Below are positions 8,596 through 28,095 of a stretch of 29,027 nucleotides of DNA, in pieces. The position numbers were made by a program, and so were the translations under genes. This DNA is from Clostridia bacterium (GTDB taxonomy: Bacteria > Bacillota_A > Clostridia > Oscillospirales > Acutalibacteraceae). The notes under the pieces are model-generated. The model was given only the letters and a program-made list of their open reading frames with translations, was not told where the DNA came from and ran no database searches. The stretch covers positions 1 through 29,027 of the forward strand of contig RZYX01000019.1 in the NCBI GenBank assembly GCA_009930155.1, read 5' to 3'. Each line of letters opens with the position of its first letter. Position 1 is the stretch's first letter.

Positions 8596-8613
8596 TTCTC
8601 TGGGGGAAGTTTC

Positions 8614-9500: not shown

Positions 9501-9529
9501 ATATATAAAGTGAAAGGTTGATAATTTAT

Positions 9530-9739
9530 ATGCTAAATCCAGATTTAAGAGGGGTTTTAACAAACCATGTAAGCCGTTATTCATTAGTAACAGCAACAGC
9601 AAAAAGAGCTAGAGATATATCACAAAAGATTGAGGATGACAAGGCAATTGTTATTGAAAAGCCTGTAACACTCGCACTTGAGGAAATTTTGAATGGTGAC
9701 TATTATATAGTAGAGCCAGAAGAAATCAGAAATATATAA
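9530..9739 (+). CDS. rpoZ: RNA polymerase omega subunit
   Basis: Omega wraps the C-terminal region of beta-prime and helps RNA polymerase assemble; in some bacteria it also forms a ppGpp site. The 69-residue protein carries the family signature SRYSLVTATAKRARDI (residues 14-29 from ATG 9530) and the later KPVTLALEEILNGDY. The in-frame TTG at 9518 directly follows the GAAAGG site and cannot be used with it, so I choose ATG 9530, at a somewhat long spacing of 12 bases. It follows gmk by 93 bases and, as in B. subtilis, belongs to the yicC-remA-gmk-rpoZ order. The usual next gene, coaBC, is missing. Confidence 0.92.
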   Translation: MLNPDLRGVLTNHVSRYSLVTATAKRARDISQKIEDDKAIVIEKPVTLALEEILNGDYYIVEPEEIRNI

Positions 9740-9753
9740 CTTTTAGTTCTGCT

Positions 9754-9775
9754 GAGTTTTAACTAACTCTTTTTT
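9754..9775 (+). terminator. Weak terminator-like hairpin after rpoZ
   Basis: GAGTT (9754-9758) pairs with AACTC (9765-9769) over a six-base loop and is followed by six T residues. The stem is only five pairs, so at most it gives partial termination between rpoZ and priA. Confidence 0.3.
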
Positions 9776-9809
9776 ATTTCAACTAATCGCTTAACGGAGG
9801 TTATTCTCC

Positions 9810-12275: not shown

Positions 12276-12303
12276 AATAGTAATAATGAAAGGATAATTA
12301 CAA

Positions 12304-12759
12304 ATGGCACTTAGAAATATAATTACAATAGAAGATGCAATTTTAAAGAAAAAGAGCAGACTAGTTGAGGCGTTTGATGATAGACTTGTTCAGTTGCTTG
12401 ATGATATGTCAGAGACAATGTATAAAGAAGAAGGATGCGGGCTTGCAGCGGTTCAGGTTGGTGTGCTTCGCAGGGTAGTTATTGTTGATGTTGGCGACGG
12501 GCTACTGGAACTTATAAATCCTGAAATAATATCTCAAGAGGGTGAGCAAAACGAACCAGAAGGTTGTTTGTCTTTACCAGGAGAAAGCGGAATAACATCT
12601 AGACCTGCAACAGTGAAAATAAAAGCTCAAAATAGAAATGGACAGTGGTGTGTTTATAAAGGCGAAGAATTAAAGGCTCGTTGTTTCTGCCATGAAATTG
12701 ACCATTTGGACGGAATAATATTTACAGATAGATTAAAAGAGATTAAAACTGAGGTGTAG
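12304..12759 (+). CDS. def: Peptide deformylase
   Basis: Peptide deformylase removes the formyl group from the N-terminal methionine of new proteins, using a bound metal (usually Fe2+). All three active-site motifs are visible: GCGLAAVQ from residue 44, EGCLS at 86-90 with the metal-binding Cys88, and HEIDH at 130-134 with two metal-ligand histidines and Glu131. At 151 residues it is a compact type 1 enzyme. It begins 28 bases after priA with an AAAGGA ribosome site and runs into fmt, so the enzymes that add and remove the formyl group are made together. Confidence 0.97.
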   Translation: MALRNIITIEDAILKKKSRLVEAFDDRLVQLLDDMSETMYKEEGCGLAAVQVGVLRRVVIVDVGDGLLELINPEIISQEGEQNEPEGCLSLPGESGITSRPATVKIKAQNRNGQWCVYKGEELKARCFCHEIDHLDGIIFTDRLKEIKTEV

Positions 12760-12762
12760 TAT

Positions 12763-13689
12763 TTGAAGATTGTATTTATGGGTACACCAGAATTTGCTGT
12801 GCCATGTATAAAGAAAATTATAAGTGACGGTCATGATGTGTTAGGAGTTTTTACACAGCCTGACAAACCAAAGGGTAGAGGATATACACTTACTCCACCA
12901 CCTGTAAAGGTAACTGCACTTGAAAATAATATTCCTGTATATCAACCATCAACTTTAAAAGATGGTGAAGCACTAAATATATTAAAAACTCTTAATCCAC
13001 AACTTATAATTGTAGTTGCTTACGGTAAAATTTTACCGAAAGATATTTTGGATTTGCCACAATATGGATGTGTAAATATTCATGCATCTGTTTTGCCAAA
13101 ATATAGAGGAGCAGCACCAATTCAGTGGTCCGTAATCAATGGTGACAAGCAAACTGGCGTTACATCAATGTATATGGAACAAGGGCTTGACACAGGAGAT
13201 ATGTTAATTACAGAAACGTTAGAAATTGGAGAAAATGAAACGGCAGGAGAGCTTCATGATAGGCTTTCAATTCTTGGTGCAGATGTTCTTTCACAAACAA
13301 TCATAAAAATAAAAAATGGTGAATTAATAAGAAGAAAACAAGATGATAATCTTTCAACATATTCTCCTATGCTAGACAAATCACTTTGTCCAATAAATTG
13401 GAATGAAAGTGCACAAACAATTCATAATAAGATAAGAGGACTTTCTCCGTGGCCTGTTGCAACGGCAAATTTTGAAGATAAAATTTTAAAAATTCATTCA
13501 TCGGTGCTTGTAGATGGAATTTATTCAAAACCTGGAGAAGTAATTTTATCTGACAATAGGCTTATAGTATGTTGTGGTGATGGAAAATGCATAGAGATTT
13601 TACAGATTCAAGCACAAGGTTCAAAGCGTATGTCAGCACAGGATTTTTTAAGGGGACACAAAATAGAAAAAGGAACATTATTAAAATAA
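12763..13689 (+). CDS. fmt: Methionyl-tRNA formyltransferase
   Basis: This enzyme formylates initiator Met-tRNA with 10-formyltetrahydrofolate. The start KIVFMGTPEFAVP is characteristic. The catalytic triad positions are Asn105, His107 (NIHASVLPKYRGAAPIQ) and Asp143 (GLDTGD). The C-terminal OB-like tRNA-binding domain (about 205-308) includes IRGLSPWPVA. The 308-residue length is typical. The start is TTG 12763, with GAGGTG inside the end of def as ribosome site, three bases after the def stop. The def-fmt pairing is nearly universal. Confidence 0.97.
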   Translation: MKIVFMGTPEFAVPCIKKIISDGHDVLGVFTQPDKPKGRGYTLTPPPVKVTALENNIPVYQPSTLKDGEALNILKTLNPQLIIVVAYGKILPKDILDLPQYGCVNIHASVLPKYRGAAPIQWSVINGDKQTGVTSMYMEQGLDTGDMLITETLEIGENETAGELHDRLSILGADVLSQTIIKIKNGELIRRKQDDNLSTYSPMLDKSLCPINWNESAQTIHNKIRGLSPWPVATANFEDKILKIHSSVLVDGIYSKPGEVILSDNRLIVCCGDGKCIEILQIQAQGSKRMSAQDFLRGHKIEKGTLLK

Positions 13690-13707
13690 AATAAGGGGTG
13701 ACATATA

Positions 13708-14400
13708 ATGCCATTATATTATAATTTGGATGTTTATTATTTAATACTTGTGGTACCTGCTTTTATATTTGCACTTATAGCACAATCTAGGGTTAAATCA
13801 ACATTTTCTGCATATTCTCATCAGAGAAGCCAAAGAGGACTTACAGGTCAGCAAGCAGCAAGACAAGTGCTTTCTTATTATGGGATAAACGATGTTGAAA
13901 TTGAAATGGTAAGCGGGAATTTAACCGACCATTATGACCCAAGGGATAATGTAATAAGACTTTCAGAAGATGTTTATTCAAGTTCATCAATAGCATCAAT
14001 CGGAGTTGCGTGTCATGAGGCAGGGCATGCAGCACAGCATGCACAAGGGTATGTACCGATAAAAATTAGAAATGCAATACTGCCCGTATGTAACATTGGT
14101 TCAAAAATTGGTATTCCGCTTGCAGTAATTGGGCTTATCTTTAACTCACAGCCATTTGTATCAATAGGGCTTATCTTTTATGCTTTTGTTGCTGTTTTTC
14201 AGTTTGCAACTTTACCTGTTGAATTTAATGCAAGTAGCAGAGCAATTAAAGTTATAGATGAAACAGGAATACTTTCAGATGAAGAAGCAACTGGAGCAAA
14301 AAGTGTTCTTAGAGCTGCCGCAATGACTTATGTTGCAGCACTTGCAGTTTCAATTGCAAACCTTTTAAGGTTATTTTTACTTTCAAATAGAAGGGATTAA
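13708..14400 (+). CDS. Membrane zinc metallopeptidase (Zn_peptidase_2, YugP-like)
   Basis: An integral-membrane protein of the Zn_peptidase_2 family (B. subtilis YugP). The N-terminal membrane helix spans about residues 6-27. The zinc motif HEAGH is at 103-107 within VACHEAGHAAQHAQGY, and three hydrophobic helices follow (about 120-170 and 205-225). A second conserved stretch, LPVEFNASSRAIKVI, probably supplies the third metal ligand through its Glu. At 230 residues it is full length. The substrate is unknown. In B. subtilis yugP lies elsewhere, while in many Clostridia a gene of this family stands between fmt and rsmB, as here. The ribosome site AAGGGGTG precedes ATG 13708. Confidence 0.9.
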   Translation: MPLYYNLDVYYLILVVPAFIFALIAQSRVKSTFSAYSHQRSQRGLTGQQAARQVLSYYGINDVEIEMVSGNLTDHYDPRDNVIRLSEDVYSSSSIASIGVACHEAGHAAQHAQGYVPIKIRNAILPVCNIGSKIGIPLAVIGLIFNSQPFVSIGLIFYAFVAVFQFATLPVEFNASSRAIKVIDETGILSDEEATGAKSVLRAAAMTYVAALAVSIANLLRLFLLSNRRD

Positions 14401-14403
14401 TTT

Positions 14404-15726
14404 ATGAAACCAGCAAGACAGGTAGCGTTTGAAATTCTTATAAAAGTTCACAGGGATAGTGCCTATTCAAATCTTGTAATAGATTCTAAACTTAATGATA
14501 ATGAAATAAGCTTAAAGGACAAATCACTTGTAACAGCAATAGTTTATGGTGTACTTGAACGCAAAATAACGCTTGATTTTATTATATCTCTTTATCTTAA
14601 ACAGTCATTAAAAAAATTAAAGCCCGAGGTTTTAACAATTTTAAGAATAGGCGTATATCAATTATTATTTATGGATAAAATACCGAATTCAGCTGCAATT
14701 AATGAGAGTGTAAATATTGCAAAAAGAAATGGCTGTGCATTTGCAAGTGGGCTTATAAATGCAGTGCTTAGAAAAGTATCAAGCAATGGATTTTCTCTTC
14801 CTAACTATGATGATGATAAAGTGCTGTTTTATAGCGTAAAATATTCTTGTCCAACTACGCTTGTGGATTTGTGGATTAATGCATATGGAGAAGATAATGC
14901 CAAGCAGATTATGCATGCATCAATCGGTGCTGCACCTACAGTTATAAGGGTAAACACTCTAAAAACCACAACAAATGAATTAATTGAGATTTTAAATGAA
15001 CAGGGAATACAAGCGACAATCTGTAACGATATTGAGAATGCAATAGTTATAGGAAAAGTTGGCGCAGTGGAAAGCATAAAGGCATATAAAGACGGGCTTT
15101 TTTATGTACAAGACACAGCTTCACAAATTTGTTGTAAAGCGCTGGGTACAAAGCCAGGCGAAACAGTTTTTGACCTTTGTTCAGCACCAGGTGGTAAAAG
15201 CTTTACAATTGCACAATATATGAATAATACCGGTTCTCTTCATTCTTTTGATATTTATCCTGCTAGAATAAATTTGATTTCAGAAGGTGCAAAAAGGCTC
15301 GGAATATCAATTATTAAAGCAGGTGTTTCAGATGCATCTGTGTTTAATGAAAGCATAGGATTTGCTGATAAAGTTTTGTGTGATGTACCTTGCTCAGGGC
15401 TTGGAATAATCAGAAGAAAACCAGAAATAAGATATAAATCTTTAGAAAATATTGACAATTTGCATAACATACAGTACGATATACTGCGAACTGCTTCAAG
15501 ATATGTAAAACAGGGTGGCACACTTCTTTATTCTACCTGTTCTCTTAACCCAAATGAAAATGATAAAATCTGTGATAGATTTTTAAAAGAACATAAGCAG
15601 TTTAAAGCAGTAAGACCATTGCCAAATATTAAATCTTATAACGATGATTCTAGCTATTTAACGCTTATGCCACATATAAATAATTCAGATGGCTTTTTTA
15701 TAGCTACTTTTATTAGAACGGAGTGA
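14404..15726 (+). CDS. rsmB: 16S rRNA (cytosine-C5) methyltransferase RsmB
   Basis: RsmB (Sun/Fmu) methylates C967 (E. coli numbering) of 16S rRNA with S-adenosylmethionine. The N-terminal NusB-like RNA-binding domain covers about residues 1-135. The Rossmann methyltransferase domain follows, with SAM motif FDLCSAPGGKSF around Asp257. DVPCSGLGIIRRKPE carries the Cys330 of motif IV, and STCSLNPNEN has the catalytic Cys379 of motif VI. The length of 440 is typical. It starts four bases after the zinc peptidase gene and is followed after four bases by rlmN, in the same order as B. subtilis yloM-yloN. Confidence 0.96.
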   Translation: MKPARQVAFEILIKVHRDSAYSNLVIDSKLNDNEISLKDKSLVTAIVYGVLERKITLDFIISLYLKQSLKKLKPEVLTILRIGVYQLLFMDKIPNSAAINESVNIAKRNGCAFASGLINAVLRKVSSNGFSLPNYDDDKVLFYSVKYSCPTTLVDLWINAYGEDNAKQIMHASIGAAPTVIRVNTLKTTTNELIEILNEQGIQATICNDIENAIVIGKVGAVESIKAYKDGLFYVQDTASQICCKALGTKPGETVFDLCSAPGGKSFTIAQYMNNTGSLHSFDIYPARINLISEGAKRLGISIIKAGVSDASVFNESIGFADKVLCDVPCSGLGIIRRKPEIRYKSLENIDNLHNIQYDILRTASRYVKQGGTLLYSTCSLNPNENDKICDRFLKEHKQFKAVRPLPNIKSYNDDSSYLTLMPHINNSDGFFIATFIRTE

Positions 15727-15730
15727 AAGT

Positions 15731-16795
15731 TTGAGTAAGGCGGATATTAGATCAATGACCATTGATGAACTAAAACAGGCTATCGAGGAATTGGGGCAGC
15801 CTAAGTTTCGTGCAGGTCAAATATATTCGTGGCTTCATCAAAAAAATGTTCAAAGCTTTGATGAAATGACAAACTTATCAAAGGATTTACGGCAGCTAAT
15901 TGATGAAAACTTTGAACTTTTAAACTGTACTATTGAAAAGAAACTTATATCCGAGTATAATAATACAGTCAAATATCTATTTAAGCTTAATGATGGTGAA
16001 TATATTGAGTCTGTTGTAATGGAATATAAGTATGGTTATACTATATGTATTTCAACACAGGTTGGCTGTAAAATGAAATGTTCTTTTTGTGCATCTGCAC
16101 TTGACGGATTTTGTAGAAATCTAACTTCGTCTGAAATGCTTGCACAAATTTACACAGCACAAAGAGATATGAATATTCGTATCTCTCATGTCGTATTGAT
16201 GGGTATGGGAGAACCGCTTGATAATTTTGATAATGTAATGCGATTTTTTAAGCTCATCACAAATGAGCAAGGTGCAAACATAGGTGCAAGGCATATTTCT
16301 CTTTCTACTTGTGGTATAGTACCTCAGATTTATAAATTACAAGAACAAAAGCTTCAGCTTACCCTTTCTGTATCTTTGCATGCACCTAGCGATAAAATCC
16401 GCTCAAAGATAATGCCAGTTAATCTTAAGTGGGGTGTTGATGAACTACTTAATGCTTGTCGTAGTTATATTAATGTAACTTCAAGAAGAATATCATTTGA
16501 ATACGCAATGATAAGTGGTGTTAATGATACAGACGAATGTGCAAAACTACTTGCGAAAAAATTAAAAGGCATGTTGTGCCATGTTAATCTTATTCCTGCA
16601 AACGAAGTAAAAGAAAATGACTATGTTAGAAGTACTAATGAGCGTCTTTTAGCATTTTCAAAGATTCTTGAAAGCAAAGGAATAACAGTAACCGTTCGTC
16701 GCAGTATGGGTAGCGATATAGACGCATCTTGCGGTCAACTTCGTAGAGGTTACGAAAAGGGAGTGAACAGCATTGAAAATAGTTGCCAAAACTGA
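15731..16795 (+). CDS. rlmN: Dual-specificity 23S rRNA/tRNA adenine-C2 methyltransferase RlmN
   Basis: RlmN is a radical-SAM enzyme that methylates C2 of A2503 in 23S rRNA and of A37 in some tRNAs. The 4Fe-4S cluster cysteines are Cys113, Cys117 and Cys120 in CKMKCSFC. The GMGEPLDNFDNV stretch binds SAM. Cys334 in DASCGQLR matches the C-terminal cysteine that forms the methylene-bridged intermediate. The 354-residue length is typical. The start is TTG 15731, eight bases after GGAG at the end of rsmB. A chloramphenicol-resistance Cfr identity is unlikely, given the synteny with rsmB and the phosphatase gene. The 3' end overlaps the next gene by 23 bases. Confidence 0.95.
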   Translation: MSKADIRSMTIDELKQAIEELGQPKFRAGQIYSWLHQKNVQSFDEMTNLSKDLRQLIDENFELLNCTIEKKLISEYNNTVKYLFKLNDGEYIESVVMEYKYGYTICISTQVGCKMKCSFCASALDGFCRNLTSSEMLAQIYTAQRDMNIRISHVVLMGMGEPLDNFDNVMRFFKLITNEQGANIGARHISLSTCGIVPQIYKLQEQKLQLTLSVSLHAPSDKIRSKIMPVNLKWGVDELLNACRSYINVTSRRISFEYAMISGVNDTDECAKLLAKKLKGMLCHVNLIPANEVKENDYVRSTNERLLAFSKILESKGITVTVRRSMGSDIDASCGQLRRGYEKGVNSIENSCQN

Positions 16796-17501
16796 TATAG
16801 GCAAAGTTCGAAGTTCAAATCAGGATTCATATGCAGCGGGCGAACTGCCAAACGGAGTTGCTTGGGCAGTCGTGTGTGATGGTATGGGTGGAAATGCTGG
16901 CGGAAACATTGCAAGTTCAACTGCCGCAAAGATGATTTCAGAGCAAATCACCTCTTCTTACAGGGATGGAATGAGTACATCTTCGATCAAAAATATATTA
17001 GTAACAGCTATAACAAATGCAAATATAAACATTTTTGACATGTCCCAAGCAAATGAAGAATTAAAGGGAATGGGAACTACTGTTATTGCAGCAATTATAA
17101 TAAACAATACAGTTTGTATTGCACATGCAGGAGATAGTAGGGCTTATCTTATATCAAACAATGATATAACACAGCTAACTAAAGATCATTCTGTTGTTCA
17201 AGCTATGGTAGAAACTGGCAAGCTTACTCCAGCCGAAGCTAAAGTTCATCCAAGAAAAAACTTGATTACTCGTGCACTTGGTGTTGATGAAAATATTCAA
17301 GTTGATTTTTGTGAGGAATTTATTAGCAATGACGAATTTTTATTGATGTGCACTGACGGCCTTACAAATTATATTGAGGTCGATGACATATATAATTTAA
17401 CAAGAGGCGGTAAGTATTATGAGTTTGCCGACAAACTTGTTGAACTTGCAAACAACAATGGTGGTGGAGATAATATAACCGTTGTTGTAATTGCATACTA
17501 A
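16773..17501 (+). CDS. prpC: PP2C-type serine/threonine phosphatase (PrpC/Stp)
   Basis: A metal-dependent protein phosphatase that reverses phosphorylation by the PASTA kinase encoded next to it. PP2C motifs appear in order: TDIGKVRSSNQDSY, VCDGMGG with metal-ligand Asp36, GDSRAYLI, LLMCTDGLTNYI with Asp195, and GGGDNITVVVI with Asp233. At 242 residues it is a bare catalytic domain with no membrane segment, so it acts in the cytoplasm. The start is TTG 16773 inside rlmN, with GGGAG upstream, so its translation is coupled to rlmN. The phosphatase-kinase pair is a conserved cell-wall and growth-state signalling unit in Gram-positive bacteria. Confidence 0.95.
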   Translation: MKIVAKTDIGKVRSSNQDSYAAGELPNGVAWAVVCDGMGGNAGGNIASSTAAKMISEQITSSYRDGMSTSSIKNILVTAITNANINIFDMSQANEELKGMGTTVIAAIIINNTVCIAHAGDSRAYLISNNDITQLTKDHSVVQAMVETGKLTPAEAKVHPRKNLITRALGVDENIQVDFCEEFISNDEFLLMCTDGLTNYIEVDDIYNLTRGGKYYEFADKLVELANNNGGGDNITVVVIAY

Positions 17502-17534
17502 CATCCTTCGAAACAGAATGGAGAGTGCAAATTT

Positions 17535-19703
17535 ATGGATAGTTATGTTGGAAAAAGGCTTGACGGTCGTTATGAAATAAGAGAGATTATCGGCGTCGGT
17601 GGTATGGCAGTTGTTTATAAGGCGTACGATAATATTGACGACCGCATAGTAGCAGTAAAGATTTTAAAAGAAGAATTTCTTGCAAACGAGGAATTTCGCA
17701 GACGCTTTAAAAATGAATCAAAAGCTATTGCAGTGCTTTCTCATCCTAACATCGTAAAGGTTTATGATGTTAGCTTTGGAGATAGATTGCAGTATATTGT
17801 AATGGAATATATTGAAGGAATAACTTTAAAAGAGTATATTGAGCAACAAAAGGTAATTAACTGGAAAGAATCAGTTCATTTTGCCACACAAATTTTGCGA
17901 GCACTTCAACATGCTCATGATAAAGGTATTGTTCATAGGGATGTTAAGCCACAAAACATTTTATTATTGCAAAATGGTAACATAAAAGTAACAGATTTTG
18001 GTATTGCGCGCTTTAGCCGTAGCGAAACACGCACAATGACAGAGAGTGCAATTGGTTCAGTTCATTACATTAGCCCTGAGCAAGCAAGGGGAGAAATAAC
18101 AGATGACAAGGCAGATATTTACTCTGTTGGCGTTGTGCTGTATGAAATGACAACTGGCGAGCTTCCATTTCAGTCTGATAGTGCCGTTTCGGTAGCTATT
18201 ATGCAACTTCAGGCAGATGCAAAAAAGCCAAGAGAGATAAATTCAAACATTCCTCTTGGACTTGAGCAAATCACAATGCGTGCAATGCAAAAGAGTCCAA
18301 AAGAACGCTATCAGTCAGCTGCAGAAATGCTGCTTGATTTGGATGAGTTTAAGCGTAACCCTGCAATAAAGTTCGATTACACATATTTTGTAGACACAGA
18401 ACCAACAAAATTTTTAAACAAGCCAACTCAATCTACATCTTCATTAAATTCCGAAATGGATGAAGAACTTGAGGATGAATATTATGAAGATGATGACCGT
18501 AAGAAGACATTACCTATTCTTATAGGTGTTTTGTCTGCACTTCTTGCTATAATTTTAATTACTATGGGTGGTTTGTTCTTCTTTACAGATGTTTTTAAAT
18601 CTGAAAAGATAGAGGTTCCTAATTTTGTTGGAATGTATTATGAAGATGATATTAAAGATAATCCAGAATATGATGACTATAAATTCTCTGTAACATATGT
18701 AAATAGCTCAAGTTCAAACTCGGGTCAAGTTTCAAAGCAGAGTCCTTATGCTTCATCAAAAGTTACGAAGGGAACAACAATTAAGCTTGAAGTTGTTTCG
18801 GGTGGAACTAAAAAAACTATTCCAGACATTGAAAATGTTGATATTGCAACGGCAAAACAAATGTTAAGTGCAGAAGGATTTACAAGCGTTAATATTATTA
18901 AGCAATATAATGCAAAGCTTGATAAAGGAACAGTTATAAAAAGTGAACCCTCAGGTGGTACCAAAGCAGATGTGTCAACAACTATAACAATTTATGTTGC
19001 AACAGATGTAGATGAAAACTTAGTCGAAGTCCCTAATGTTTGTGAAATGAGCCAAGCTGATGCAAAGGTATTTCTTGAAAGTGTTAATCTTGTGTTAGGT
19101 AAAGTTACGGAAGAAGATAGTAATCTTCCAAAGGGTCAAGTTATTAGACAGAGTATAGATAATCCAGAACCAGTGCCAAAGGGAACCAAAATAGACATTG
19201 TTGTAAGCTCTGGTGTTCCTAGCGTTGGTAATACAACAATTACTATTAAATTGCCAGATGATTCAGGTAAAAATGGAGTTTGCAAAGTTTATGTTAACAA
19301 CGAACTTCTGTCTAGTAAAAATACACTTCTAGATGGTGCGAATTATTCCTTTGAGGTTCAGGGTTCAGGAGCATCAAACAAAGTAAAAGTTCTTATTGAT
19401 AGTTTCGTACTCTATGAATGCAATATAGATTTTACAAAAAATCCAGCTGCAATCGGAAATGTAATAAATAGTGTTGATAAATACCCTGTGTCAAAAGAAG
19501 TCCCACCTGTAATTGGAATGACATTTGATGATGCAAAAAAAGAACTTGCAAAGTACGGATTTACCAATGTTACAAAAACAGAAAAACCTTCGGCAACCGA
19601 AAATATTGGTAAGGTTATAATTCAATCTGAAGATGCAGGAACAAAGGCAAAGACAACAGATGAAATAAAACTTACTATCGGCAAATCTTATTCTCTATTT
19701 TGA
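17535..19703 (+). CDS. prkC: PASTA-domain Ser/Thr protein kinase (PrkC/Stk) with an extra domain
   Basis: A membrane kinase whose outside PASTA repeats sense muropeptides or lipid II and whose inside kinase phosphorylates cell-wall, translation and dormancy proteins. In B. subtilis PrkC triggers spore germination. The kinase domain (about 1-275) has the Gly loop GVGGMAVVYKA, VAVKIL, the catalytic loop HRDVKPQN (Asp136), DFG (Asp154) and SPEQARG. An acidic linker leads to one membrane helix (about 326-350). Outside lie PASTA units at about 359-422, 424-492 and 496-560, then about 94 residues not of PASTA type (562-655), then a fourth PASTA unit (656-720). The insert may be a beta-sandwich. The gene follows prpC by 33 bases and precedes rsgA, as in B. 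subtilis. Confidence 0.95.
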   Translation: MDSYVGKRLDGRYEIREIIGVGGMAVVYKAYDNIDDRIVAVKILKEEFLANEEFRRRFKNESKAIAVLSHPNIVKVYDVSFGDRLQYIVMEYIEGITLKEYIEQQKVINWKESVHFATQILRALQHAHDKGIVHRDVKPQNILLLQNGNIKVTDFGIARFSRSETRTMTESAIGSVHYISPEQARGEITDDKADIYSVGVVLYEMTTGELPFQSDSAVSVAIMQLQADAKKPREINSNIPLGLEQITMRAMQKSPKERYQSAAEMLLDLDEFKRNPAIKFDYTYFVDTEPTKFLNKPTQSTSSLNSEMDEELEDEYYEDDDRKKTLPILIGVLSALLAIILITMGGLFFFTDVFKSEKIEVPNFVGMYYEDDIKDNPEYDDYKFSVTYVNSSSSNSGQVSKQSPYASSKVTKGTTIKLEVVSGGTKKTIPDIENVDIATAKQMLSAEGFTSVNIIKQYNAKLDKGTVIKSEPSGGTKADVSTTITIYVATDVDENLVEVPNVCEMSQADAKVFLESVNLVLGKVTEEDSNLPKGQVIRQSIDNPEPVPKGTKIDIVVSSGVPSVGNTTITIKLPDDSGKNGVCKVYVNNELLSSKNTLLDGANYSFEVQGSGASNKVKVLIDSFVLYECNIDFTKNPAAIGNVINSVDKYPVSKEVPPVIGMTFDDAKKELAKYGFTNVTKTEKPSATENIGKVIIQSEDAGTKAKTTDEIKLTIGKSYSLF

Positions 19704-19719
19704 TTGGGGTCGAATGTTT

Positions 19720-20598
19720 ATGCAACAAAGCGGACTTATAATTAAAGGAATAGGCGGTTTCTACTATGTGGAAACCGCCTGCGAAGTTCTTGAATGTAAA
19801 GCAAGAGGCATATTCCGCAAGGATAAAATAACGCCTTTTGTTGGGGACTTTGTAAAAATTTCTGTAAACACAGATGCAGAGAATATAATAGATGAAATAG
19901 AGCCCCGCAGAAATTGTTTAAAGCGTCCGCCTATATCAAATTTAGATCAGCTCATAATAGTTGCATCATCCTGCGACCCAAGTCCAAGCACTTTGATTAT
20001 AGACAAGCTTACGGCTATTGCGTGTAATAAAAACATTGAGCCAATAATAGTGTTTAATAAAACTGATTTGAAAAATGTTGATGAACTTATCAATATTTAC
20101 AATTTGGCAGGGTTCAAGACCTTTGCAGTATCTGGTAAAAAGGGCGAGGGACTCGAAGAGCTTAAAAATGTTTTGAGTAATAAGATAAGTGCTTTTACAG
20201 GAAACTCAGGTGTTGGAAAGTCAACTTTACTTAATTGTATTGATAACCGATTGGGACTTTCTACAGGCGAAATTAGCGAGAAACTTGGCAGAGGCAGACA
20301 CACAACAAGGGAAACGCAGCTGTTTAAAGTTCAGGGTGGTTATGTTGCAGACACACCTGGATTTTCATCTCTTGAAATTGAAAGAAATGAAATAATAAAA
20401 AAGGATGACTTACAATATTGTTTTCCAGAATTTGCACCATATATAGGTGGTTGTAAATTCACCTCGTGTGCTCATATTAATGATAAAGGTTGCAGTATAA
20501 TAGAAGCTGTTAAAAACGGAGAAATAAGTCAGTCAAGGCATAATAGTTATACATCAATGTACAATGATGTTAAAAACATAAAAGATTGGGAGCTTTAA
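19720..20598 (+). CDS. rsgA: Ribosome small subunit-dependent GTPase RsgA
   Basis: RsgA (YjeQ/CpgA) is a circularly permuted GTPase that checks late assembly of the 30S subunit. An N-terminal OB fold (about 1-65) is followed by the permuted GTPase: FNKTDL (G4) comes before GNSGVGKST (G1, from residue 161) and DTPGFSS (G3). A C-terminal zinc finger follows with Cys/His ligands in CKFTSCAHINDKGC. The 292-residue length is typical. I prefer ATG 19720, ten bases after GGGG (19706-19709); ATG 19714 is only four bases from it. It is the last gene of the operon, and the stop codon lies in the loop of the terminator. The genes rpe and thiN that follow it in B. subtilis are absent. Confidence 0.95.
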   Translation: MQQSGLIIKGIGGFYYVETACEVLECKARGIFRKDKITPFVGDFVKISVNTDAENIIDEIEPRRNCLKRPPISNLDQLIIVASSCDPSPSTLIIDKLTAIACNKNIEPIIVFNKTDLKNVDELINIYNLAGFKTFAVSGKKGEGLEELKNVLSNKISAFTGNSGVGKSTLLNCIDNRLGLSTGEISEKLGRGRHTTRETQLFKVQGGYVADTPGFSSLEIERNEIIKKDDLQYCFPEFAPYIGGCKFTSCAHINDKGCSIIEAVKNGEISQSRHNSYTSMYNDVKNIKDWEL

Positions 20599-20612
20599 AG
20601 GCTCCCTTTTTT
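20588..20612 (+). terminator. Intrinsic terminator of the yicC-rsgA operon
   Basis: GGGAGC (20588-20593) pairs with GCTCCC (20601-20606) over a seven-base loop that contains the rsgA stop codon, followed by six T residues. It separates rsgA from the spoVM promoter directly downstream. Confidence 0.85.
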
Positions 20613-20618: not shown

Positions 20619-20647
20619 TTCACACATTTATTTTAAAAGCGTATAAT
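20619..20647 (+). promoter_or_regulatory. spoVM: Strong promoter of spoVM
   Basis: TTCACA (20619-20624), exactly 17 bases, then a perfect TATAAT (20642-20647); start site near 20654. In B. subtilis spoVM is read by mother-cell sigma-E. CGTATAAT (20640-20647) also resembles a sigma-E -10 (CATACAAT type), but no good sigma-E -35 is seen, so which sigma factor acts is open. Confidence 0.6.
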
Positions 20648-20689
20648 GTAATAGCTTTGATTGCTAAGATATAGTTGGGAGGATATCAT

Positions 20690-20773
20690 ATGAAGATTGT
20701 AGTACTCAGGAGTCCCAAGGTTATAAGAGGATTTTTAAGATTTATCTTTGGTATAAAAAAGGAAGAAGTTTAG
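20690..20773 (+). CDS. spoVM: Stage V sporulation protein M (27-residue amphipathic peptide)
   Basis: SpoVM is a tiny amphipathic helix that inserts into the outer forespore membrane by sensing its positive curvature and recruits SpoIVA, so that the coat assembles only there. The ORF encodes 27 residues starting MKIVVLRSPKVIRGF and ending GIKKEEV, close to the 26 of B. subtilis SpoVM (MKFYTIKLPKFLGG start). Pro9, Lys10, Gly14, Arg17 and Gly21 match in an ungapped alignment with the B. subtilis protein as I remember it. A strong GGGAGG (20677-20682) lies seven bases before ATG 20690. Position also fits: in B. subtilis spoVM lies a short distance downstream of the rsgA homologue cpgA. The gene is too short for most ORF callers. 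Confidence 0.88.
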   Translation: MKIVVLRSPKVIRGFLRFIFGIKKEEV

Positions 20774-20809
20774 CTATAACATAATAAAAAGGTAGTTACT
20801 TAAAACACA

Positions 20810-20877
20810 GCACTGTCCTAAACAATATAAAGCTTATAAAATAGCTTTTGTTAAATTGTTTAGGGCGGTGTATTTTT
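20810..20877 (+). terminator. Long two-part hairpin between spoVM and the SipL-like gene
   Basis: A 17-bp stem joins 20810-20826 to 20855-20871 with three internal or terminal G-U pairs. Inside it AAAGCT (20829-20834) can pair with AGCTTT (20843-20848). It is followed by A and five T residues (20873-20877). It is most simply the spoVM terminator. The rest of this 209-base gap (20774-20982) holds no gene I can support. Confidence 0.65.
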
Positions 20878-20982
20878 ACGCTTGTTTTATAAAAATAAAG
20901 AGTAGAAAAATTTTTATCATAAAAAGGACAGGGCGGGAATATAGATTGATAGACAGCAAATTGCAAAAGGAGATGCGACTGT

Positions 20983-22515
20983 ATGGATTTAAAGATAACA
21001 AAGGAAGCTGTGTGCATAAACGAAACAATATACGAAGGCTCTGTTGAACAGGCAATAGACAGTGATGTTACGCTGCCTGATTATTGTCCTGATATTCTTC
21101 GCGTACTAAAATGCACAATAATGCCAAGGATAAACTCAACCCAAACAGCAGGAGACAGAATAACAGTTGATGGGTCGGCACTTTTACGGGCAATTTATGT
21201 ATCAGAAAACGGAAGAATGCATTGTTATGAACAGAGTATACCATTTTCAAAATTCATTGAGAAAAAGGGATTAGAAAGCAATCCTTTTGTAAAGGTTAGG
21301 ATAAAAACGGAATATATAAACTGTAGAGCAGTTAGCCAAAGAAGGCTTGATATTCACGGTGCATTATCTGTTAATTTTATGGTTGTATCAAAAAAGCCAA
21401 AAGAAATTTTAAGCGATGCACAGGGTGAAGGTATTCAGACAAAGAAAAAATGTATTGAAGTAAGTAGTGTAGTTGGTAGTACAAGTAGAGCTTTCCCACT
21501 TACAGATGTTCTTGAAATAGGTGCAAGTAAACCACCTATAGCACAAATGGTAAGAACAAGTGCATTTGCAACCGCAAGTGAAATAAAAGTTATAAATAAT
21601 AAGGTAATGATAAAAGGCGAACTTATAATTAATGCTATGTATAGTGCAGATACAACAGAGGCATCACTTGAAACAATCGAAACATCATTACCGATAAGCC
21701 AAGTAGTTGAGCTTGCAGGTATTACAGAAGATTGCACAACAGATATAATGCTTGATTTAACGAGTATAGATATTATTCCAAAAGCAGATAGTTCTGGCTC
21801 TATGCGTTTGCTTGATATAACAGCAAGAGTAGATGCCACTCTTAATGCTACTAAAATAATGAATATACCGATAATTATTGATGCTTATTCAACACAGTAT
21901 GAAATAGAATCAGAAAGCAAAATAGTAGATTTTAAACGACTATTAGAAAGTTTTACAGAAACAAATCTGTGCCGAAGTTCAATTGATGTTTCTGGAATAG
22001 GTATAAAAAAAGTGCTGGATATGTGGTGCTCTGATATAACATCGTCCTCACATATTCATGAAGAAGAACTTGTTATAAGAGGTACAATAAATGTTTGTAT
22101 GCTTGTTGAAGATGCCGATAATCAAATCGGTTATATAGAAAGACAGATAAATTACGAGCATAAACGCAAAACAATAGTTACAGAAAAAATAGAGTGTGAT
22201 CCATTCGTTAGCGTTTGTGCATCCAGCTTTGTAATTGGAGCTGGCGAGAGCATAGATGTGAGAGTAGAGATAAAGGTTCAGGCAAGTGTTTTTGCCGTGT
22301 CATCAAGCAGAATGATAGACAGTATAACTATTGATGAAGAACAGGGCAAGAAAAAAACCAAAGCATCGCTTACCATATATTTTTCACAACAAGGCGAAAG
22401 CGTGTGGGAGATAGCCAGAAGATATAACACCACTTTAGAAGCAATAATGCAAGAGAACTCTTTGACAGAAGAAAAAGTGTTAGAAAATGCTATGCTTCTT
22501 ATACCGGGAATATAA
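20983..22515 (+). CDS. sipL: SPOCS/DUF3794-LysM spore coat protein, probable SipL
   Basis: A 510-residue protein with repeated DUF3794/SPOCS domains (roughly residues 30-140, 165-280 and 325-440) and a C-terminal LysM domain (about 462-509, from QQGESVWEIARRYNTTLEAI to MLLIPGI). This is the domain plan of C. difficile SipL, a mother-cell protein whose LysM domain binds SpoIVA to anchor the coat to the forespore and which stands in for SpoVID of Bacillus. The N-terminal TLPDYCPDILRVLKC motif is typical of clostridial members. No signal peptide or membrane helix is present, as expected for a mother-cell coat protein. ATG 20983 follows AAAGGAG (20966-20972). The gene stands 15 bases before spoIVA, which strengthens the SipL call. 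Another SPOCS-LysM paralogue role is the alternative. Confidence 0.85.
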   Translation: MDLKITKEAVCINETIYEGSVEQAIDSDVTLPDYCPDILRVLKCTIMPRINSTQTAGDRITVDGSALLRAIYVSENGRMHCYEQSIPFSKFIEKKGLESNPFVKVRIKTEYINCRAVSQRRLDIHGALSVNFMVVSKKPKEILSDAQGEGIQTKKKCIEVSSVVGSTSRAFPLTDVLEIGASKPPIAQMVRTSAFATASEIKVINNKVMIKGELIINAMYSADTTEASLETIETSLPISQVVELAGITEDCTTDIMLDLTSIDIIPKADSSGSMRLLDITARVDATLNATKIMNIPIIIDAYSTQYEIESESKIVDFKRLLESFTETNLCRSSIDVSGIGIKKVLDMWCSDITSSSHIHEEELVIRGTINVCMLVEDADNQIGYIERQINYEHKRKTIVTEKIECDPFVSVCASSFVIGAGESIDVRVEIKVQASVFAVSSSRMIDSITIDEEQGKKKTKASLTIYFSQQGESVWEIARRYNTTLEAIMQENSLTEEKVLENAMLLIPGI

Positions 22516-22530
22516 AAAGGGGGTAATAAT

Positions 22531-24009
22531 ATGGAAGAGAACAATATATATAACGATATTGCCCAAAGGACACAAGGCGATATATACATAGGTGTTGTCG
22601 GTCCTGTTAGAACGGGTAAATCAACTTTTATAAAACGATTTATGGATGAGATGGTATTACCAAACATTGAGGGTGAATATCAAAGAGAACGTGCTATGGA
22701 TGAAATGCCACAATCATCCGCTGGAAGAACAATAATGACAACAGAGCCAAAATTTATTCCAGAAGATGCAATAGATATAGTGATGCCTGATCAAGCACAT
22801 TTTAGAGTAAGAATGATAGATTGTGTAGGATATATTGTTCCTAGTTCTCTGGGATACATTGAGGATGACCAACCAAGAATGGTTAGAACTCCATGGTATG
22901 AGCATGAGATACCATTTAATATGGCTGCAGAAATGGGTACACAAAAAGTAATAAGTGAGCATTCTACAATTGGACTTGTAATTACTACGGATGGAAGTAT
23001 AAGTGACATACCTCGAGATGAGTATGAAGAGGCAGAAGAGCGTGTAATAAATGAACTTAAAGAAATTAATAAACCGTTTGTAGTTCTTCTTAATTGTATG
23101 TATCCACAAACACAAAATGCAAGAGCACTTGCAACAAGCCTTATGCAAAAATATGAAGTGCCAGTTATTCCTGTTAACTGTTTAGAGATGGATGAACAGG
23201 AGATAAAAGCAGTTTTAGCACAAGTGTTATTTGAATTCCCCATAAAAGAAATCTCAATTAATATGCCTAGCTGGCTTATGTCGCTTGATTCTAAACATTG
23301 GCTTCGTGAAAGTACATTTAAATCAATTGAGATGTCGGCACACTCAGTTTCACATGTACGAGATGTAAACACCCTTGTTACAGAAATATGCACTTGTGAG
23401 CATATAGAAACATCGCAGATAGTATCGATGAATCTTGCAACAGGTAGTGCAGAAATCTCAGTAACAATGAATCAAGAGCTGTTCTATAAGGTGATTGCTG
23501 AGAGCACAGGTCTTGAGATTGATTGTGAACAAGGTCTTATGAACTGCATTGTAGAGCTAGCAAGAGTCAAAAAAGAATACGACAGGTTAAAGGGAGCACT
23601 TGATGAGGTGGAGGCAACTGGCTATGGAATAGTTATGCCAACAATTGATGAGTTAACTCTTGAAGAACCAGAAATAATGAAACAAGGTGGAAGATACGGA
23701 GTTAGGCTTTGTGCTTCAGCACCATCGATACACATGATAAAAGCAAATATCACTACAGAAGTTGCACCAATAGTAGGCTCCGAGAGTCAGTCTGAAGAGC
23801 TTGTTATGTATCTGCTTAAGGAGTTTGAAGAGAACCCTGCAAAGATATGGGATTCTAACATTTTTGGCAAGTCACTTAATGATTTGGTAAACGAGGGGCT
23901 TCGCAACAAGCTTTACCATATGCCTACTGATGCACGAATGAAACTTCAAGAGACACTTGAAAAAGTAATAAACGAGGGATGTAGCGGATTAGTTTGCATA
24001 ATATTGTAA
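22531..24009 (+). CDS. spoIVA: Stage IV sporulation protein A (coat basement ATPase)
   Basis: SpoIVA is a cytoskeletal ATPase of the mother cell. It is recruited by SpoVM to the forespore surface, hydrolyses ATP and polymerises irreversibly into the basement layer on which the coat builds. The N-terminal signature NIYNDIAQRTQGDIYIGVVG and Walker A GPVRTGKST with Lys30 agree in position with B. subtilis SpoIVA. The TRAFAC-like GTPase-derived domain covers about 1-240. The central region follows, and the C-terminus ends in CSGLVCIIL, the conserved membrane-targeting end. The 492-residue length matches the family. The ribosome site AAAAGGGGG precedes ATG 22531. It forms an apparent two-gene unit with the SipL-like gene and ends at a strong terminator. 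Confidence 0.97.
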   Translation: MEENNIYNDIAQRTQGDIYIGVVGPVRTGKSTFIKRFMDEMVLPNIEGEYQRERAMDEMPQSSAGRTIMTTEPKFIPEDAIDIVMPDQAHFRVRMIDCVGYIVPSSLGYIEDDQPRMVRTPWYEHEIPFNMAAEMGTQKVISEHSTIGLVITTDGSISDIPRDEYEEAEERVINELKEINKPFVVLLNCMYPQTQNARALATSLMQKYEVPVIPVNCLEMDEQEIKAVLAQVLFEFPIKEISINMPSWLMSLDSKHWLRESTFKSIEMSAHSVSHVRDVNTLVTEICTCEHIETSQIVSMNLATGSAEISVTMNQELFYKVIAESTGLEIDCEQGLMNCIVELARVKKEYDRLKGALDEVEATGYGIVMPTIDELTLEEPEIMKQGGRYGVRLCASAPSIHMIKANITTEVAPIVGSESQSEELVMYLLKEFEENPAKIWDSNIFGKSLNDLVNEGLRNKLYHMPTDARMKLQETLEKVINEGCSGLVCIIL

Positions 24010-24049
24010 ATAGTCAAGTTTATGCCAATTAACATTAGAATAAAAAATG

Positions 24050-24091
24050 CCACTATTGTAGTTGATTTAACTCTACAATAGTGGTTTTTTT
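24050..24091. terminator. Bidirectional terminator between spoIVA and the DUF2804 gene
   Basis: A perfect 12-bp stem joins CCACTATTGTAG (24050-24061) to CTACAATAGTGG (24073-24084) over an 11-base loop. Seven T residues follow on the + strand, and six A residues (24042-24047) precede it, giving a U tract on the minus strand. It lies between two convergent genes. Confidence 0.9.
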
Positions 24092-25245: not shown

Positions 25246-25326
25246 GTTAAATATAACTAAATAATTTTTAGATTTTTTATGTAAATGTACATTTTATAAA
25301 CTATCGTGCTAAAAGAATATTATTAT

Positions 25327-25365
25327 ATATATACGGCGTGACCTTATAAGTCACGCCGTATATAT
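25327..25365. repeat. Perfect 16-bp inverted repeat (hairpin) of unknown role
   Basis: The arms 25327-25342 and 25350-25365 are perfectly complementary (ATATATACGGCGTGAC against its complement) around the loop CTTATAA. The GC-rich core CGGCGTGAC stands out from the AT-rich surroundings. It lies in a 298-base gap between two minus-strand genes, 115 bases past the stop of the upstream one, with no clear T tract on the minus strand and only TTTT on the + strand. The rest of the gap (25182-25479) shows no gene. Confidence 0.8.
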
Positions 25366-25479
25366 GATTTTGTTATTAAAATTTTTAAGTAATATCTAAA
25401 ATTTATTAACCTTTTGTTAAATGCTAGTTTGTCAAAATATATTTTTAAAATTTAGAGGTTTATTATTAAGATGAGCTTT

Positions 25480-26025: not shown

Positions 26026-26052
26026 ATTATAATTTAGGAAGGAATGGTATTT

Positions 26053-28095
26053 TTGGGCCGTAAAAAATGGAGCATTTCTAATGCTAGTAAAGAAAAAGCG
26101 GCACAGATTGCCGAAAAATACAATATAGATGCATTTGCTGCGTTGCTGTTGGTTTCACGAAATATTGATAACGATAACGAAATTAAAGCGTTTTTTGAAC
26201 CAGCATCAAATATTTCAGACCCATTTGAAATTAAAGATATGCAGAAGGCTGTTGACCGTATAAATCAGGCTATTTTTGATTTTGAGAGAATTGCAGTATT
26301 TGGAGATTATGATGCGGATGGAGTTACTGCTACATCTGTTTTATACTCTTATCTCGATGCTCAGGGTGCAGATGTATTTTACTATATACCCAGCCGTAAA
26401 TATGAAGGATATGGATTGAGTAATTCTATTATTGATAAATTGCATCAGAATGGTGCAAAACTTATTATAACCGTTGATAATGGTATTAGCGCAATCAAAG
26501 AAATAGATTATGCAAATGAAATTGGAATTGACGTTATTGTTACTGATCATCATCTTCCAGGTGACACGCTACCAAATGCCATAGCTGTTGTTGACCCCCA
26601 CCGTAAGGATTGTACAAGTCAGTTTAAAGACTGGGCGGGCGTTGGAGTCGCTTTTAAACTCGTTAGTGCTATTGAAGGCGGTGAGCCTGAGACTTTGCTT
26701 CATCATTTTGCAGATTTTGTAGCTATTGGAACTGTTGCAGATGTTGTTCCATTAGTTGGAGAAAATCGAAAGCTTGTAAAACAAGGTTTGCATATTATAA
26801 ATCGCAGAGAGCGTCTTGGTATTGAAGCTCTTTGTCAATTCTCAGGATTGCGTGAAAAGCACATAACTGCTACTAGCATAGCTTTTGGTCTTGCACCCAG
26901 AATAAATGCTGCAGGGCGTATGGGAAGTGCAGACAGAGCTTTGAGCATGCTGCTGTGCGATGATGCAGAAATGGCTGAAGACATTGCAACTGAAATTAAC
27001 AATGCAAATGTTCTGCGTAAAGAGGCTGAGCAAATCATACTTGAAAGTGTTGAACAACAGTTTAAAGAAAATCCCAAAAGATGCTTTGACCGTGTGATTG
27101 TTGTAAATGGCGAAGGTTGGCATGATGGTGTTATTGGAATTGTTGCTTCAAGATTAGTTGAAAAGTATTCAAAACCATGCGTAGTAATTACCAGTGATGG
27201 TGAAATTTCTAAAGGCTCCGGAAGAAGTATTGATGGTTTTTCTCTTTACAATGCTCTTTATGCTGTAAAAGATAAATTAGAAATATTCGGTGGGCATAGC
27301 CTTGCTGCAGGATTTACAATGAAAACAAATAATATAGAAGATTTTAGAAAATTGATAAATGAATATGCTTCCAACATGGAAATGCCATATCCACAACTTA
27401 AAATTGACTGTAAGATTAATCCACAGTTTATTAATGTAGATATTTTAAACTCACTTTCGATACTTGAACCGTTTGGTGCAGGTAACAACACTCCAGTTTT
27501 TGGGATTTATGAAATGGTAATTGATTCAATTATTCCCGTTGGAGACCAAAAGCAACATATAAAAATCAACATGCACAAATACGGTAAAGAAAGCAAAATA
27601 TGTGCAATGAAATTTGGCACATCCCCAGTTGATTTTCCTTTTAAACAAGGTGATATTGTCGATGCTGTTATAAGTGTTGACCGAAACGAATTTATGGGTG
27701 AACTTAGAGTAACAGTACTTTTAAAAGATATAAGATTTTTTGAAACTGATGATGATGAAATGATAAAGGGAATTAAAATATTTGAAAAAGTTTGTAGAGG
27801 GGAAAAGCTTTTAAAAGATGAGGCTATATATGCTTTTCCATCAAGAGAACTTTTTGCTAATATTTACAAATTTATTAAGTTAAATGGCAACTGGAGATAT
27901 TCAATAGAAATTTTATGGAAAAGAGTTAATACTCCTGAAAATAACTATTGTAAAACAGCTGTTGTGCTTGAAGTTTTTAAAGAGCTCGGGCTTTTAGACA
28001 TAAATGAGTCTGGTCATATAATTATTCCAAGTGATGTGCAAAAAACTTCACTGGACAATTCAATTTTATTAAAATTTATAAAAGAACAATGCTAA
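26053..28095 (+). CDS. recJ: Single-stranded-DNA exonuclease RecJ
   Basis: RecJ digests single-stranded DNA 5' to 3' in recombination and mismatch or fork repair. The DHH-superfamily metal motifs are visible: DYDADG from Asp85, TVDNGISA, and TDHH with Asp165-His166-His167. The DHHA1 domain follows (GSGRSIDGFSLYNAL, GGHSLAAGFT), then an OB-fold region with LEPFGAGNNTPVF, and a C-terminal winged-helix-like extension (about 575-680) typical of Bacillota forms. At 680 residues it is between E. coli (about 577) and B. subtilis (about 786). I prefer TTG 26053, ten bases after AGGAAGG (26036-26042); ATG 26044 overlaps that site. It is followed after 38 bases by relA; the apt gene found between them in B. 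subtilis is missing. Confidence 0.94.
   Translation: MGRKKWSISNASKEKAAQIAEKYNIDAFAALLLVSRNIDNDNEIKAFFEPASNISDPFEIKDMQKAVDRINQAIFDFERIAVFGDYDADGVTATSVLYSYLDAQGADVFYYIPSRKYEGYGLSNSIIDKLHQNGAKLIITVDNGISAIKEIDYANEIGIDVIVTDHHLPGDTLPNAIAVVDPHRKDCTSQFKDWAGVGVAFKLVSAIEGGEPETLLHHFADFVAIGTVADVVPLVGENRKLVKQGLHIINRRERLGIEALCQFSGLREKHITATSIAFGLAPRINAAGRMGSADRALSMLLCDDAEMAEDIATEINNANVLRKEAEQIILESVEQQFKENPKRCFDRVIVVNGEGWHDGVIGIVASRLVEKYSKPCVVITSDGEISKGSGRSIDGFSLYNALYAVKDKLEIFGGHSLAAGFTMKTNNIEDFRKLINEYASNMEMPYPQLKIDCKINPQFINVDILNSLSILEPFGAGNNTPVFGIYEMVIDSIIPVGDQKQHIKINMHKYGKESKICAMKFGTSPVDFPFKQGDIVDAVISVDRNEFMGELRVTVLLKDIRFFETDDDEMIKGIKIFEKVCRGEKLLKDEAIYAFPSRELFANIYKFIKLNGNWRYSIEILWKRVNTPENNYCKTAVVLEVFKELGLLDINESGHIIIPSDVQKTSLDNSILLKFIKEQC

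What the first reader, a model, noticed from the sequence alone, without database searches (positions are those of the whole stretch)
20619..24091. Compact coat-initiation module: spoVM, a SipL-like gene and spoIVA side by side
The 27-residue SpoVM, a SPOCS-LysM protein and SpoIVA are encoded consecutively between two terminators. In C. difficile SipL binds SpoIVA through its LysM domain; in Bacillus SpoVM recruits SpoIVA and SpoVID couples it to encasement. As I recall, in C. difficile and in B. subtilis these genes are scattered. Here the curvature sensor, the polymerising ATPase and the tether form one small locus, so the LysM protein can be assigned as SipL by position as well as by domains. 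It suggests co-inheritance of the whole basement-layer machine in this lineage.
Basis: partly seen in the sequence, partly recalled or inferred. Interest (0 to 1): 0.72.

Follow-up and report, generated by a model that had tools for sequence, protein, structure and literature searches.

The report
Three spore-coat starter genes side by side
In a group of gut-type anaerobes, three genes that start the building of the spore coat often sit together in one place, although in the best studied spore formers they lie far apart; the proteins look ordinary, the arrangement is a recurring variant.

Summary
The genes are real: spoVM (20690-20773), sipL (20983-22515), spoIVA (22531-24009). The SipL assignment holds: SPOCS and LysM domains, a confident model with three beta domains plus LysM, the aromatic residue that C. 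difficile SipL needs, and no second SPOCS gene found in the closest relative's draft genome. One detail is wrong: a third terminator (20810-20871) separates spoVM from sipL, and a sigmaE-type promoter motif follows it. So spoVM is probably its own unit and sipL-spoIVA a bicistron. The adjacency is no one-genome quirk: in 147 genomes of the relative's order, sipL lies within 3 kb of spoIVA in 58 of 124 with both located; spoVM lies within 3 kb upstream of sipL in 46 of 123 decidable loci; all three are together in 27. It is also far from fixed. spoVM seems to be at its old place behind stp-prkC-rsgA; rpmB, its usual neighbour elsewhere in the phylum sample, is gone, and sipL-spoIVA stands there. 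Follow-up found a ~50-aa membrane-hairpin gene upstream of spoVM in 64 of 72 loci (relatives and window) and in 8 of 15 phylum-sample loci; the window lacks it.

The parts
16773..17501 (+). stp (PP2C-type Ser/Thr phosphatase), first gene of the old block upstream of spoVM
   Evidence: NF033484 269.9 bits
17535..19703 (+). prkC (PASTA Ser/Thr kinase)
   Evidence: NF033483 594 bits
19714..20598 (+). rsgA (ribosome-assembly GTPase), last gene before spoVM
   Evidence: TIGR00157 230 bits
20588..20606 (+). terminator of rsgA
20619..20647 (+). promoter-like site before spoVM, TTCACA-17-TATAAT (sigmaA-type, 11 of 12); kept in relative L001, not general (3 of 54 loci score 10 or more)
   Evidence: match to a consensus only
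20690..20773 (+). spoVM, 27 aa, Pro9 present
   Evidence: NF033436 33.7 bits over cut-off 31
20810..20871 (+). terminator between spoVM and sipL
   Evidence: fold z -4.3; counterpart in L001
20917..20946 (+). sigmaE-type promoter motif of sipL-spoIVA (TCATAAA-N14-AATATAGAT)
   Evidence: same motif upstream of sipL in 58 of 166 loci, 0.6 in shuffles; unchanged except one spacer base in L001
20983..22515 (+). sipL, 510 aa: three SPOCS beta domains and a C-terminal LysM
   Evidence: Pfam; model, pLDDT 91.6
22531..24009 (+). spoIVA, 492 aa, 15 nt behind sipL
   Evidence: TIGR02836 738 bits, PF09547/PF20438/PF20439
24049..24085 (.). terminator between spoIVA and the convergent DUF2804 gene
   Evidence: fold z -6.6
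26044..28095 (+). recJ, next large ORF on this strand; a recJ-like gene follows spoVM or sipL directly in six order loci
   Evidence: TIGR00644 562 bits

Best explanation
This is the start kit of the spore coat's basement layer: SpoVM (membrane-curvature peptide), SpoIVA (polymerising ATPase) and SipL (SPOCS-LysM tether). Shown by sequence: what the three genes are, and their order. Inferred: sipL and spoIVA are read as a bicistron from a mother-cell sigmaE-type promoter, so the tether and the polymer are made together, while spoVM is read on its own behind rsgA at a separately set level. As in C. difficile, the LysM of SipL would bind SpoIVA and the SPOCS domains would hold coat proteins, while SpoVM helps SpoIVA stick to the forespore membrane. 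Inferred history: spoVM stayed at its old place behind stp-prkC-rsgA; in this order rpmB left and sipL-spoIVA came to stand on the far side of spoVM, before recJ; later rearrangements separated the pieces in many lineages.
For: Families. SipL model with three SPOCS beta domains and LysM. LysM residue 475 is Trp in 120 and Phe in 6 of 126 SipLs (125 order loci and the window); in C. difficile W475F works, while W475A/D/E lower heat-resistant spores about 100-fold (PMC6436350, section 9 part 1). Two SPOCS matches, both in one ORF, in the draft genome of L001, the closest relative found. Internal terminator; terminator-like in 19 of 41 co-directional spoVM-sipL gaps (window included, L001 counted twice as L001 and L081) against 4.25 in mononucleotide shuffles. 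sigmaE-type motif before sipL in 58 of 166 loci against 0.6, before spoVM in 0 of 54; none directly before spoIVA in 40 loci where sipL precedes it. sipL-spoIVA gap about 18 nt at the median, 45 of 54 at most 40 nt. Linkage: sipL within 3 kb of spoIVA in 58 of 124 order genomes. spoVM beside rpmB in 14 of 15 phylum-sample regions and in 0 of 25 order genomes with both located; rsgA upstream and co-directional in 24 of 113 order sipL loci and in 8 of 18 order spoVM loci picked because they lie away from sipL.
Against: No expression data; promoters are consensus matches. The sipL motif was written after looking at a few of the loci, so those few are not independent. With a recalled B. subtilis sigmaE consensus the window's sites do not beat shuffles. 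The loci where spoIVA stands alone also lack the motif (1 of 35 has it), so its absence before spoIVA in linked loci is weak support for a bicistron. 22 of 41 co-directional gaps show no terminator by my finder. The linkage is absent in more than half of the decidable order loci, and the SipL tree (quick method) needs 14 changes of spoIVA adjacency and 18 of spoVM linkage, so one origin with later breaks is not shown. LysM residue 471 and T483 vary. The window's own genome is not held.
Confidence: 0.8

Rival explanations
1. All three genes form one operon read from the spoVM promoter; the hairpin between spoVM and sipL only attenuates.
For: All on one strand; in 13 of 41 co-directional loci the spoVM-sipL gap (sipL start estimated) is under 90 nt and shows no terminator-like site. 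A hairpin can be partial.
Against: Strong hairpin and T-tract, with a counterpart in L001 at the same place, followed by a promoter motif that recurs in relatives.
Confidence: 0.15
2. The adjacency is a neutral leftover of gene order with no bearing on function.
For: spoVM seems to be simply at its old place behind rsgA; spoIVA adjacency is absent in 71 of 125 and spoVM linkage in 77 of 123 decidable loci.
Against: spoVM stays near sipL although its orientation differs (14 of 46 divergent, 4 changes on the tree) and in 18 loci where spoIVA is not adjacent.
Confidence: 0.35
3. The LysM protein is another SPOCS-LysM paralogue and not SipL.
For: Genomes of the phylum sample can hold many SPOCS domains (20 PF12673 matches in G190); NCBIfam names only SpoVID, far below its cut-off (20.2 of 169.9 bits).
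Against: SPOCS matches in only one ORF of G001; kinship with SPOCS-LysM proteins elsewhere in the phylum sample (20 of 20 chosen loci have an ORF scoring 113 bits or more, the LysM end of the profile is matched in 18); key aromatic residue in 126 of 126; three SPOCS domains plus LysM.
Confidence: 0.04

Closest known systems
SipL (CD3567) of Clostridioides difficile
   Same: SPOCS (DUF3794) domains and C-terminal LysM; aromatic residue at the position of W475, hydrophobic residue at that of I463
   Different: Here next to spoIVA and spoVM; in C. difficile the locus tags lie far apart (CD3567, CD2629)
spoVM locus of C. difficile (CD25622-spoVM, near rpmB) and of Bacillus
   Same: SpoVM peptide; in 14 of 15 phylum-sample regions beside rpmB, in 9 of 15 with rsgA upstream
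   Different: Here sipL-spoIVA stands on that side instead of rpmB, and the small gene before spoVM is missing
SpoVID of Bacillus (TIGR02907)
   Same: Works like it: SPOCS and LysM tether of SpoIVA
   Different: Only the LysM matches, far below the family cut-off; window has Trp at the position where SpoVID has Glu (paper section)

Membership tests
SipL | SPOCS domains (PF12673), three in C. difficile | tested here: met
   Two Pfam stretches; three beta domains in the model; three DUF3794 in C. difficile per PMC6436350 (passage)
SipL | C-terminal LysM | tested here: met
   PF01476 469-501, 26.5 bits over cut-off 20.9
SipL | Aromatic residue at LysM position 475 and a residue at 463 that is not positively charged | tested here: met
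   Trp475 and Leu463 in the window; rule from PMC6436350
SipL | No better SipL elsewhere in the genome | tested here: inconclusive
   Window genome not held; relative G001, a draft, has SPOCS matches in one ORF only
SipL | Binds SpoIVA; needed for coat encasement | not testable with these tools
   Needs an experiment
SpoVM | 26-27 aa peptide of the SpoVM model with Pro9 | tested here: met
   NF033436 over cut-off; Pro9 in the translation
SpoVM | Beside rpmB | tested here: not met
   The genes next to spoVM here are rsgA, sipL and spoIVA; rpmB is not near spoVM in 25 of 25 order genomes with both located. A habit of position, not a defining trait
SpoIVA | Full-length equivalog model with ATPase, middle and C-terminal domains | tested here: met
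   TIGR02836 1-492, PF09547, PF20438, PF20439
SpoVID | Over the TIGR02907 cut-off | tested here: not met
   20.2 bits against 169.85

The most novel reading that the evidence does not exclude
SpoVM in Clostridia has a frequent partner that has been overlooked: a ~47-57 aa two-helix membrane protein with the pattern P-x15-G, encoded upstream of spoVM (64 of 72 loci of relatives and window; 8 of 15 phylum-sample loci) and, where the profile finds it in whole genomes, found only there. C. difficile CD25622, described as limited to its family, would be one member. The basement-layer start kit would then be hairpin protein - SpoVM - SipL - SpoIVA, and the window's lineage would be a natural knock-out of the hairpin gene in which spoVM stands behind its own terminator and promoter.
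Probability: 0.5. Interest if true: 0.62.

Novelty: new variant of a known kind. Interest (0 to 1): 0.42.

Why it matters
Coat assembly in Clostridia is known mostly from C. difficile, where the genes are scattered and spoVM is largely dispensable. A lineage that keeps tether and polymer in one probable transcription unit, with spoVM beside them under separate control, offers a natural system for asking how their doses are matched. The small membrane gene before spoVM, if functional, gives a testable candidate for how SpoVM works in Clostridia.

Tried and rejected
Rejected: a single three-gene transcription unit as the likeliest reading (internal terminator). Rejected: adjacency unique to one genome. 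Rejected: SipL as a SpoVID. A recalled B. subtilis sigmaE consensus gave nothing above shuffles in the window; the motif seen across relatives did, but it was written after looking at some of them. My terminator finder undercounts: it gave none for L001, L022, L200, L111 and L118, where folding shows long hairpins with T-tracts (L182, also folded, is less clear). Searching SipL as a single protein in genome contigs found no relative; SpoIVA did. The fold search of the SipL model against solved structures gave no match with E <= 0.001; in the 50 rows listed only LysM pieces had a probability near 1. The hairpin profile A3 misses members: five order genomes with a hairpin by position (G058, G138, G135, G123, G010) and all nine phylum-sample genomes searched had no strong match; the phylum-sample hairpins were found by position and hydrophobicity.

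Distances run from the SPOCS match, not from the gene end. The phylum sample may contain order members that the order sample did not draw. In one search weaker SPOCS matches were cut from the list; re-listed 18 genomes. The comparison of contigs in the phylum sample was made by eye. SpoVM detection near sipL uses a model grown from the window, which may miss divergent SpoVMs. The 72 hairpin loci are 63 of the order sample, 8 named relatives and the window; some named relatives could repeat sampled species. P-x15-G was noticed on the same sequences on which it was then counted.

Papers: passages only for PMC5607322, PMC8745062, PMC3789822, PMC10867305, PMC10659427; PMC6436350 passages, section 8 (30) and section 9 part 1 of 2 (31). 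All others: search listing only. Recalled, from no call: B. subtilis gene order around spoVM and spoIVA, sigmaA and B. subtilis sigmaE consensus.
Full report
What is there. The window holds a strand of housekeeping genes ending in stp-prkC-rsgA (16773-20598), then spoVM (20690-20773, 27 aa), sipL (20983-22515, 510 aa) and spoIVA (22531-24009, 492 aa), then a DUF2804 gene on the other strand and recJ. SpoVM passes the NCBIfam cut-off (33.7 of 31 bits), SpoIVA passes its equivalog model by far (738 of 460 bits), and the middle protein carries SPOCS (SipL) and LysM domains.

Correction. There are three. Besides 20588-20606 and 24049-24085, a long hairpin with a T-tract lies at 20810-20871, between spoVM and sipL (z -4.3). 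The closest relative found, L001 (spoIVA 89% identical), has a counterpart at the same place. About 40 nt further on stands TCATAAA-N14-AATATAGAT (20917-20946); it is unchanged in L001 except for one spacer base. Such a motif occurs within 160 nt upstream of sipL in 58 of 166 loci (window included) against a mean of 0.6 in shuffled sequence, at a median of 64 nt before the estimated start, and before spoVM in 0 of 54. It resembles the sigmaE/sigmaK type reported for C. difficile (ATA in the -35 region; passage of PMC3789822), where sipL, spoIVA and spoVM are sigmaE-dependent. The motif was written after looking at a few loci. A recalled B. subtilis consensus did not beat shuffles in the window. 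sipL and spoIVA are 15 nt apart here and about 18 nt apart at the median in 54 linked loci. The motif is absent directly before spoIVA in 40 of 40 loci with sipL in front, but also in 34 of 35 without, so that comparison does not help. The reading is spoVM alone and sipL-spoIVA as a bicistron. In C. difficile spoIVA and sipL are expressed 50- to 100-fold above spoVM (passage), so separate control would make sense. This is inference.

Is it SipL? The model (pLDDT 91.6, pTM 0.81) shows three beta domains and a C-terminal LysM, as described for C. difficile SipL (three DUF3794 and LysM). In C. difficile the aromatic residue at 475 and a suitable residue at 463 matter for SpoIVA binding (section 9 part 1 of PMC6436350). 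The window has Trp475 and Leu463, and in 126 SipLs (125 order loci and the window) residue 475 is Trp in 120 and Phe in 6; positions 471 and 483 vary. G001, the draft genome of L001, has SPOCS matches in one ORF only. In 20 stretches chosen from the phylum sample, each has an ORF that scores 113 bits or more against the order's SipL profile, and the LysM end is matched in 18. The SpoVID model is far below cut-off. The window's own genome is not held.

How common is the arrangement? In the order of G001 (147 genomes drawn; named relatives among the loci include Oscillospiraceae, Angelakisella and Massiliimalia, so Oscillospirales is my inference), 132 genomes pass the SpoIVA cut-off and 129 have a SPOCS match. 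Of 124 with both located, sipL lies within 3 kb of spoIVA in 58 (57 directly upstream on the same strand; G017 has it on the other side), on another contig in 59, and further away on the same contig in 7. Among the 80 named loci plus the window, 40 have sipL directly upstream, 35 do not and 6 cannot be judged at a contig end. In the phylum sample (101 genomes, 61 with SPOCS matches) I found adjacency only in G001 and G019, both members of the order (compared by eye, with a truncated list). In 129 order sipL loci, spoIVA follows directly in 54 of 125 decidable, spoVM lies within 3 kb upstream in 46 of 123, rsgA upstream in 24 of 113; all three coat genes are together in 27, and with rsgA in 11. 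A control scan downstream of sipL with the same SpoVM model hit one of 169 loci, L132, with a strong SpoVM-like peptide. spoVM points away from sipL in 14 of the 46.

History. In the phylum sample, rpmB lies next to spoVM in 14 of 15 fetched regions, and rsgA upstream in 9 of 15 (five of five). In the order, rpmB is near spoVM in 0 of 25 genomes with both located (nearest about 12 kb) and was found in 0 of 129 fetched sipL loci, while spoVM is often still behind rsgA, also where sipL is elsewhere (8 of 18 picked loci, plus 2 in opposite orientation, 8 without). A recJ-like gene follows spoVM directly in three loci without sipL there (L211-L213) and follows spoVM-sipL in three without spoIVA there (L097, L130, L153); in the window it is the next large ORF on the strand after spoIVA. 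The simplest reading is an old order rsgA-spoVM-sipL-spoIVA-recJ in this lineage with later breaks. The trees do not prove it: the SpoIVA tree needs 5 changes of adjacency over 75 decidable rows, the SipL tree 14 for spoIVA and 18 for spoVM.

A fourth gene that the window lacks. Looking upstream of spoVM, 57 of 72 loci (63 of the order sample, 8 named relatives, the window) have an ORF with a strongly hydrophobic segment ending 3-57 nt (median 16) before spoVM. A profile of these finds a matching ORF 101-228 nt upstream of spoVM on the same strand in 7 more, so 64 of 72; none in the window, L001 and six others. As a control, the same test before sipL gives 17 of 168 and before spoIVA 5 of 75. 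The product is typically 47-57 aa, with two hydrophobic stretches around a proline; P-x15-G occurs in 45 of 57 against 5.7 in shuffles, and in 8 of 8 from the phylum sample against 1.2 (a pattern noticed on the same sequences). Eight of 15 phylum-sample spoVM loci have such an ORF, seven do not. Between near relatives the changes fall mostly at third codon positions (162, 80, 425), as in a coding gene; the 22 pairs overlap. For six members tested no Pfam model reaches its cut-off and no NCBIfam model matches. In 24 whole genomes nine have a strong match, each upstream of spoVM on its strand; three have only weak matches elsewhere, and twelve have none, G001 among them (some of the nine supplied rows of the profile, and five genomes with a hairpin by position were missed). 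99 proteins in the large database match; the names shown are 'hypothetical' or 'unknown'. In C. difficile a 50-aa gene of unknown function, CD25622, is cotranscribed with spoVM and was described as primarily conserved in, or unique to, Peptostreptococcaceae (passages); I did not have its sequence, so kinship is untested. Against a strong role: in C. difficile a CD25622 insertion, thought polar on spoVM, looked like the spoVM mutant.

Literature. Searches for SipL with SpoIVA, SpoVM, operon, SPOCS, DUF3794, rpmB, gene order, CD25622 and Oscillospira listed no paper whose title, abstract start or passages seen describe a joint spoVM-sipL-spoIVA locus. Most subscription papers are not in that library.

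Verdict. The proteins are ordinary; the gene arrangement is a real, recurring, order-level variant and not a fixed module. The best lead is the small membrane gene, which lies outside this window.

Noticed in passing
L200, L058, L022, L130, L102 and others, upstream of spoVM; not in the window: A ~50-aa membrane-hairpin ORF precedes spoVM in 64 of 72 loci (relatives and window) and 8 of 15 phylum-sample loci; six members tested fit no Pfam or NCBIfam family.
   Followed up: yes
window 20619-20647: spoVM is preceded by a near-perfect sigmaA-type promoter (11 of 12), kept in L001 but not general (3 of 54 loci score 10 or more), odd for a gene that is sigmaE-dependent in C. difficile.
   Followed up: partly
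L102, L156, L058, L176 and others: 6 of 55 SpoVM peptides lack proline at position 9, which a C. difficile paper calls the only fully conserved residue; in some, such as L058 and L176, proline is at position 8.
   Followed up: no
order sipL loci, e.g. L105, L122, L135, L086: spoVM and sipL are divergent in 14 of 46 linked loci, so they may share one intergenic control region.
   Followed up: partly
window 7717-20598: Long block yicC-remA-gmk-rpb6-priA-def-fmt-Zn peptidase-rsmB-rlmN-stp-prkC-rsgA, much as recalled for the Bacillus ylo region.
   Followed up: partly
window 4039-6461: Spore gene ytfJ (PF09579) between a DUF2953 gene and a D-Ala-D-Ala carboxypeptidase gene.
   Followed up: no
window 25326-25366: Hairpin of 17 pairs between the DUF2804 gene and recJ.
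   Followed up: no
genomes G190, G154, G199, G236: 16 to 20 SPOCS domain matches in one genome, with several neighbouring ORFs; SPOCS arrays of unknown role.
   Followed up: no
L091 (genome G017): sipL lies on the downstream side of spoIVA here, the only such case among 58 linked order genomes.
   Followed up: no
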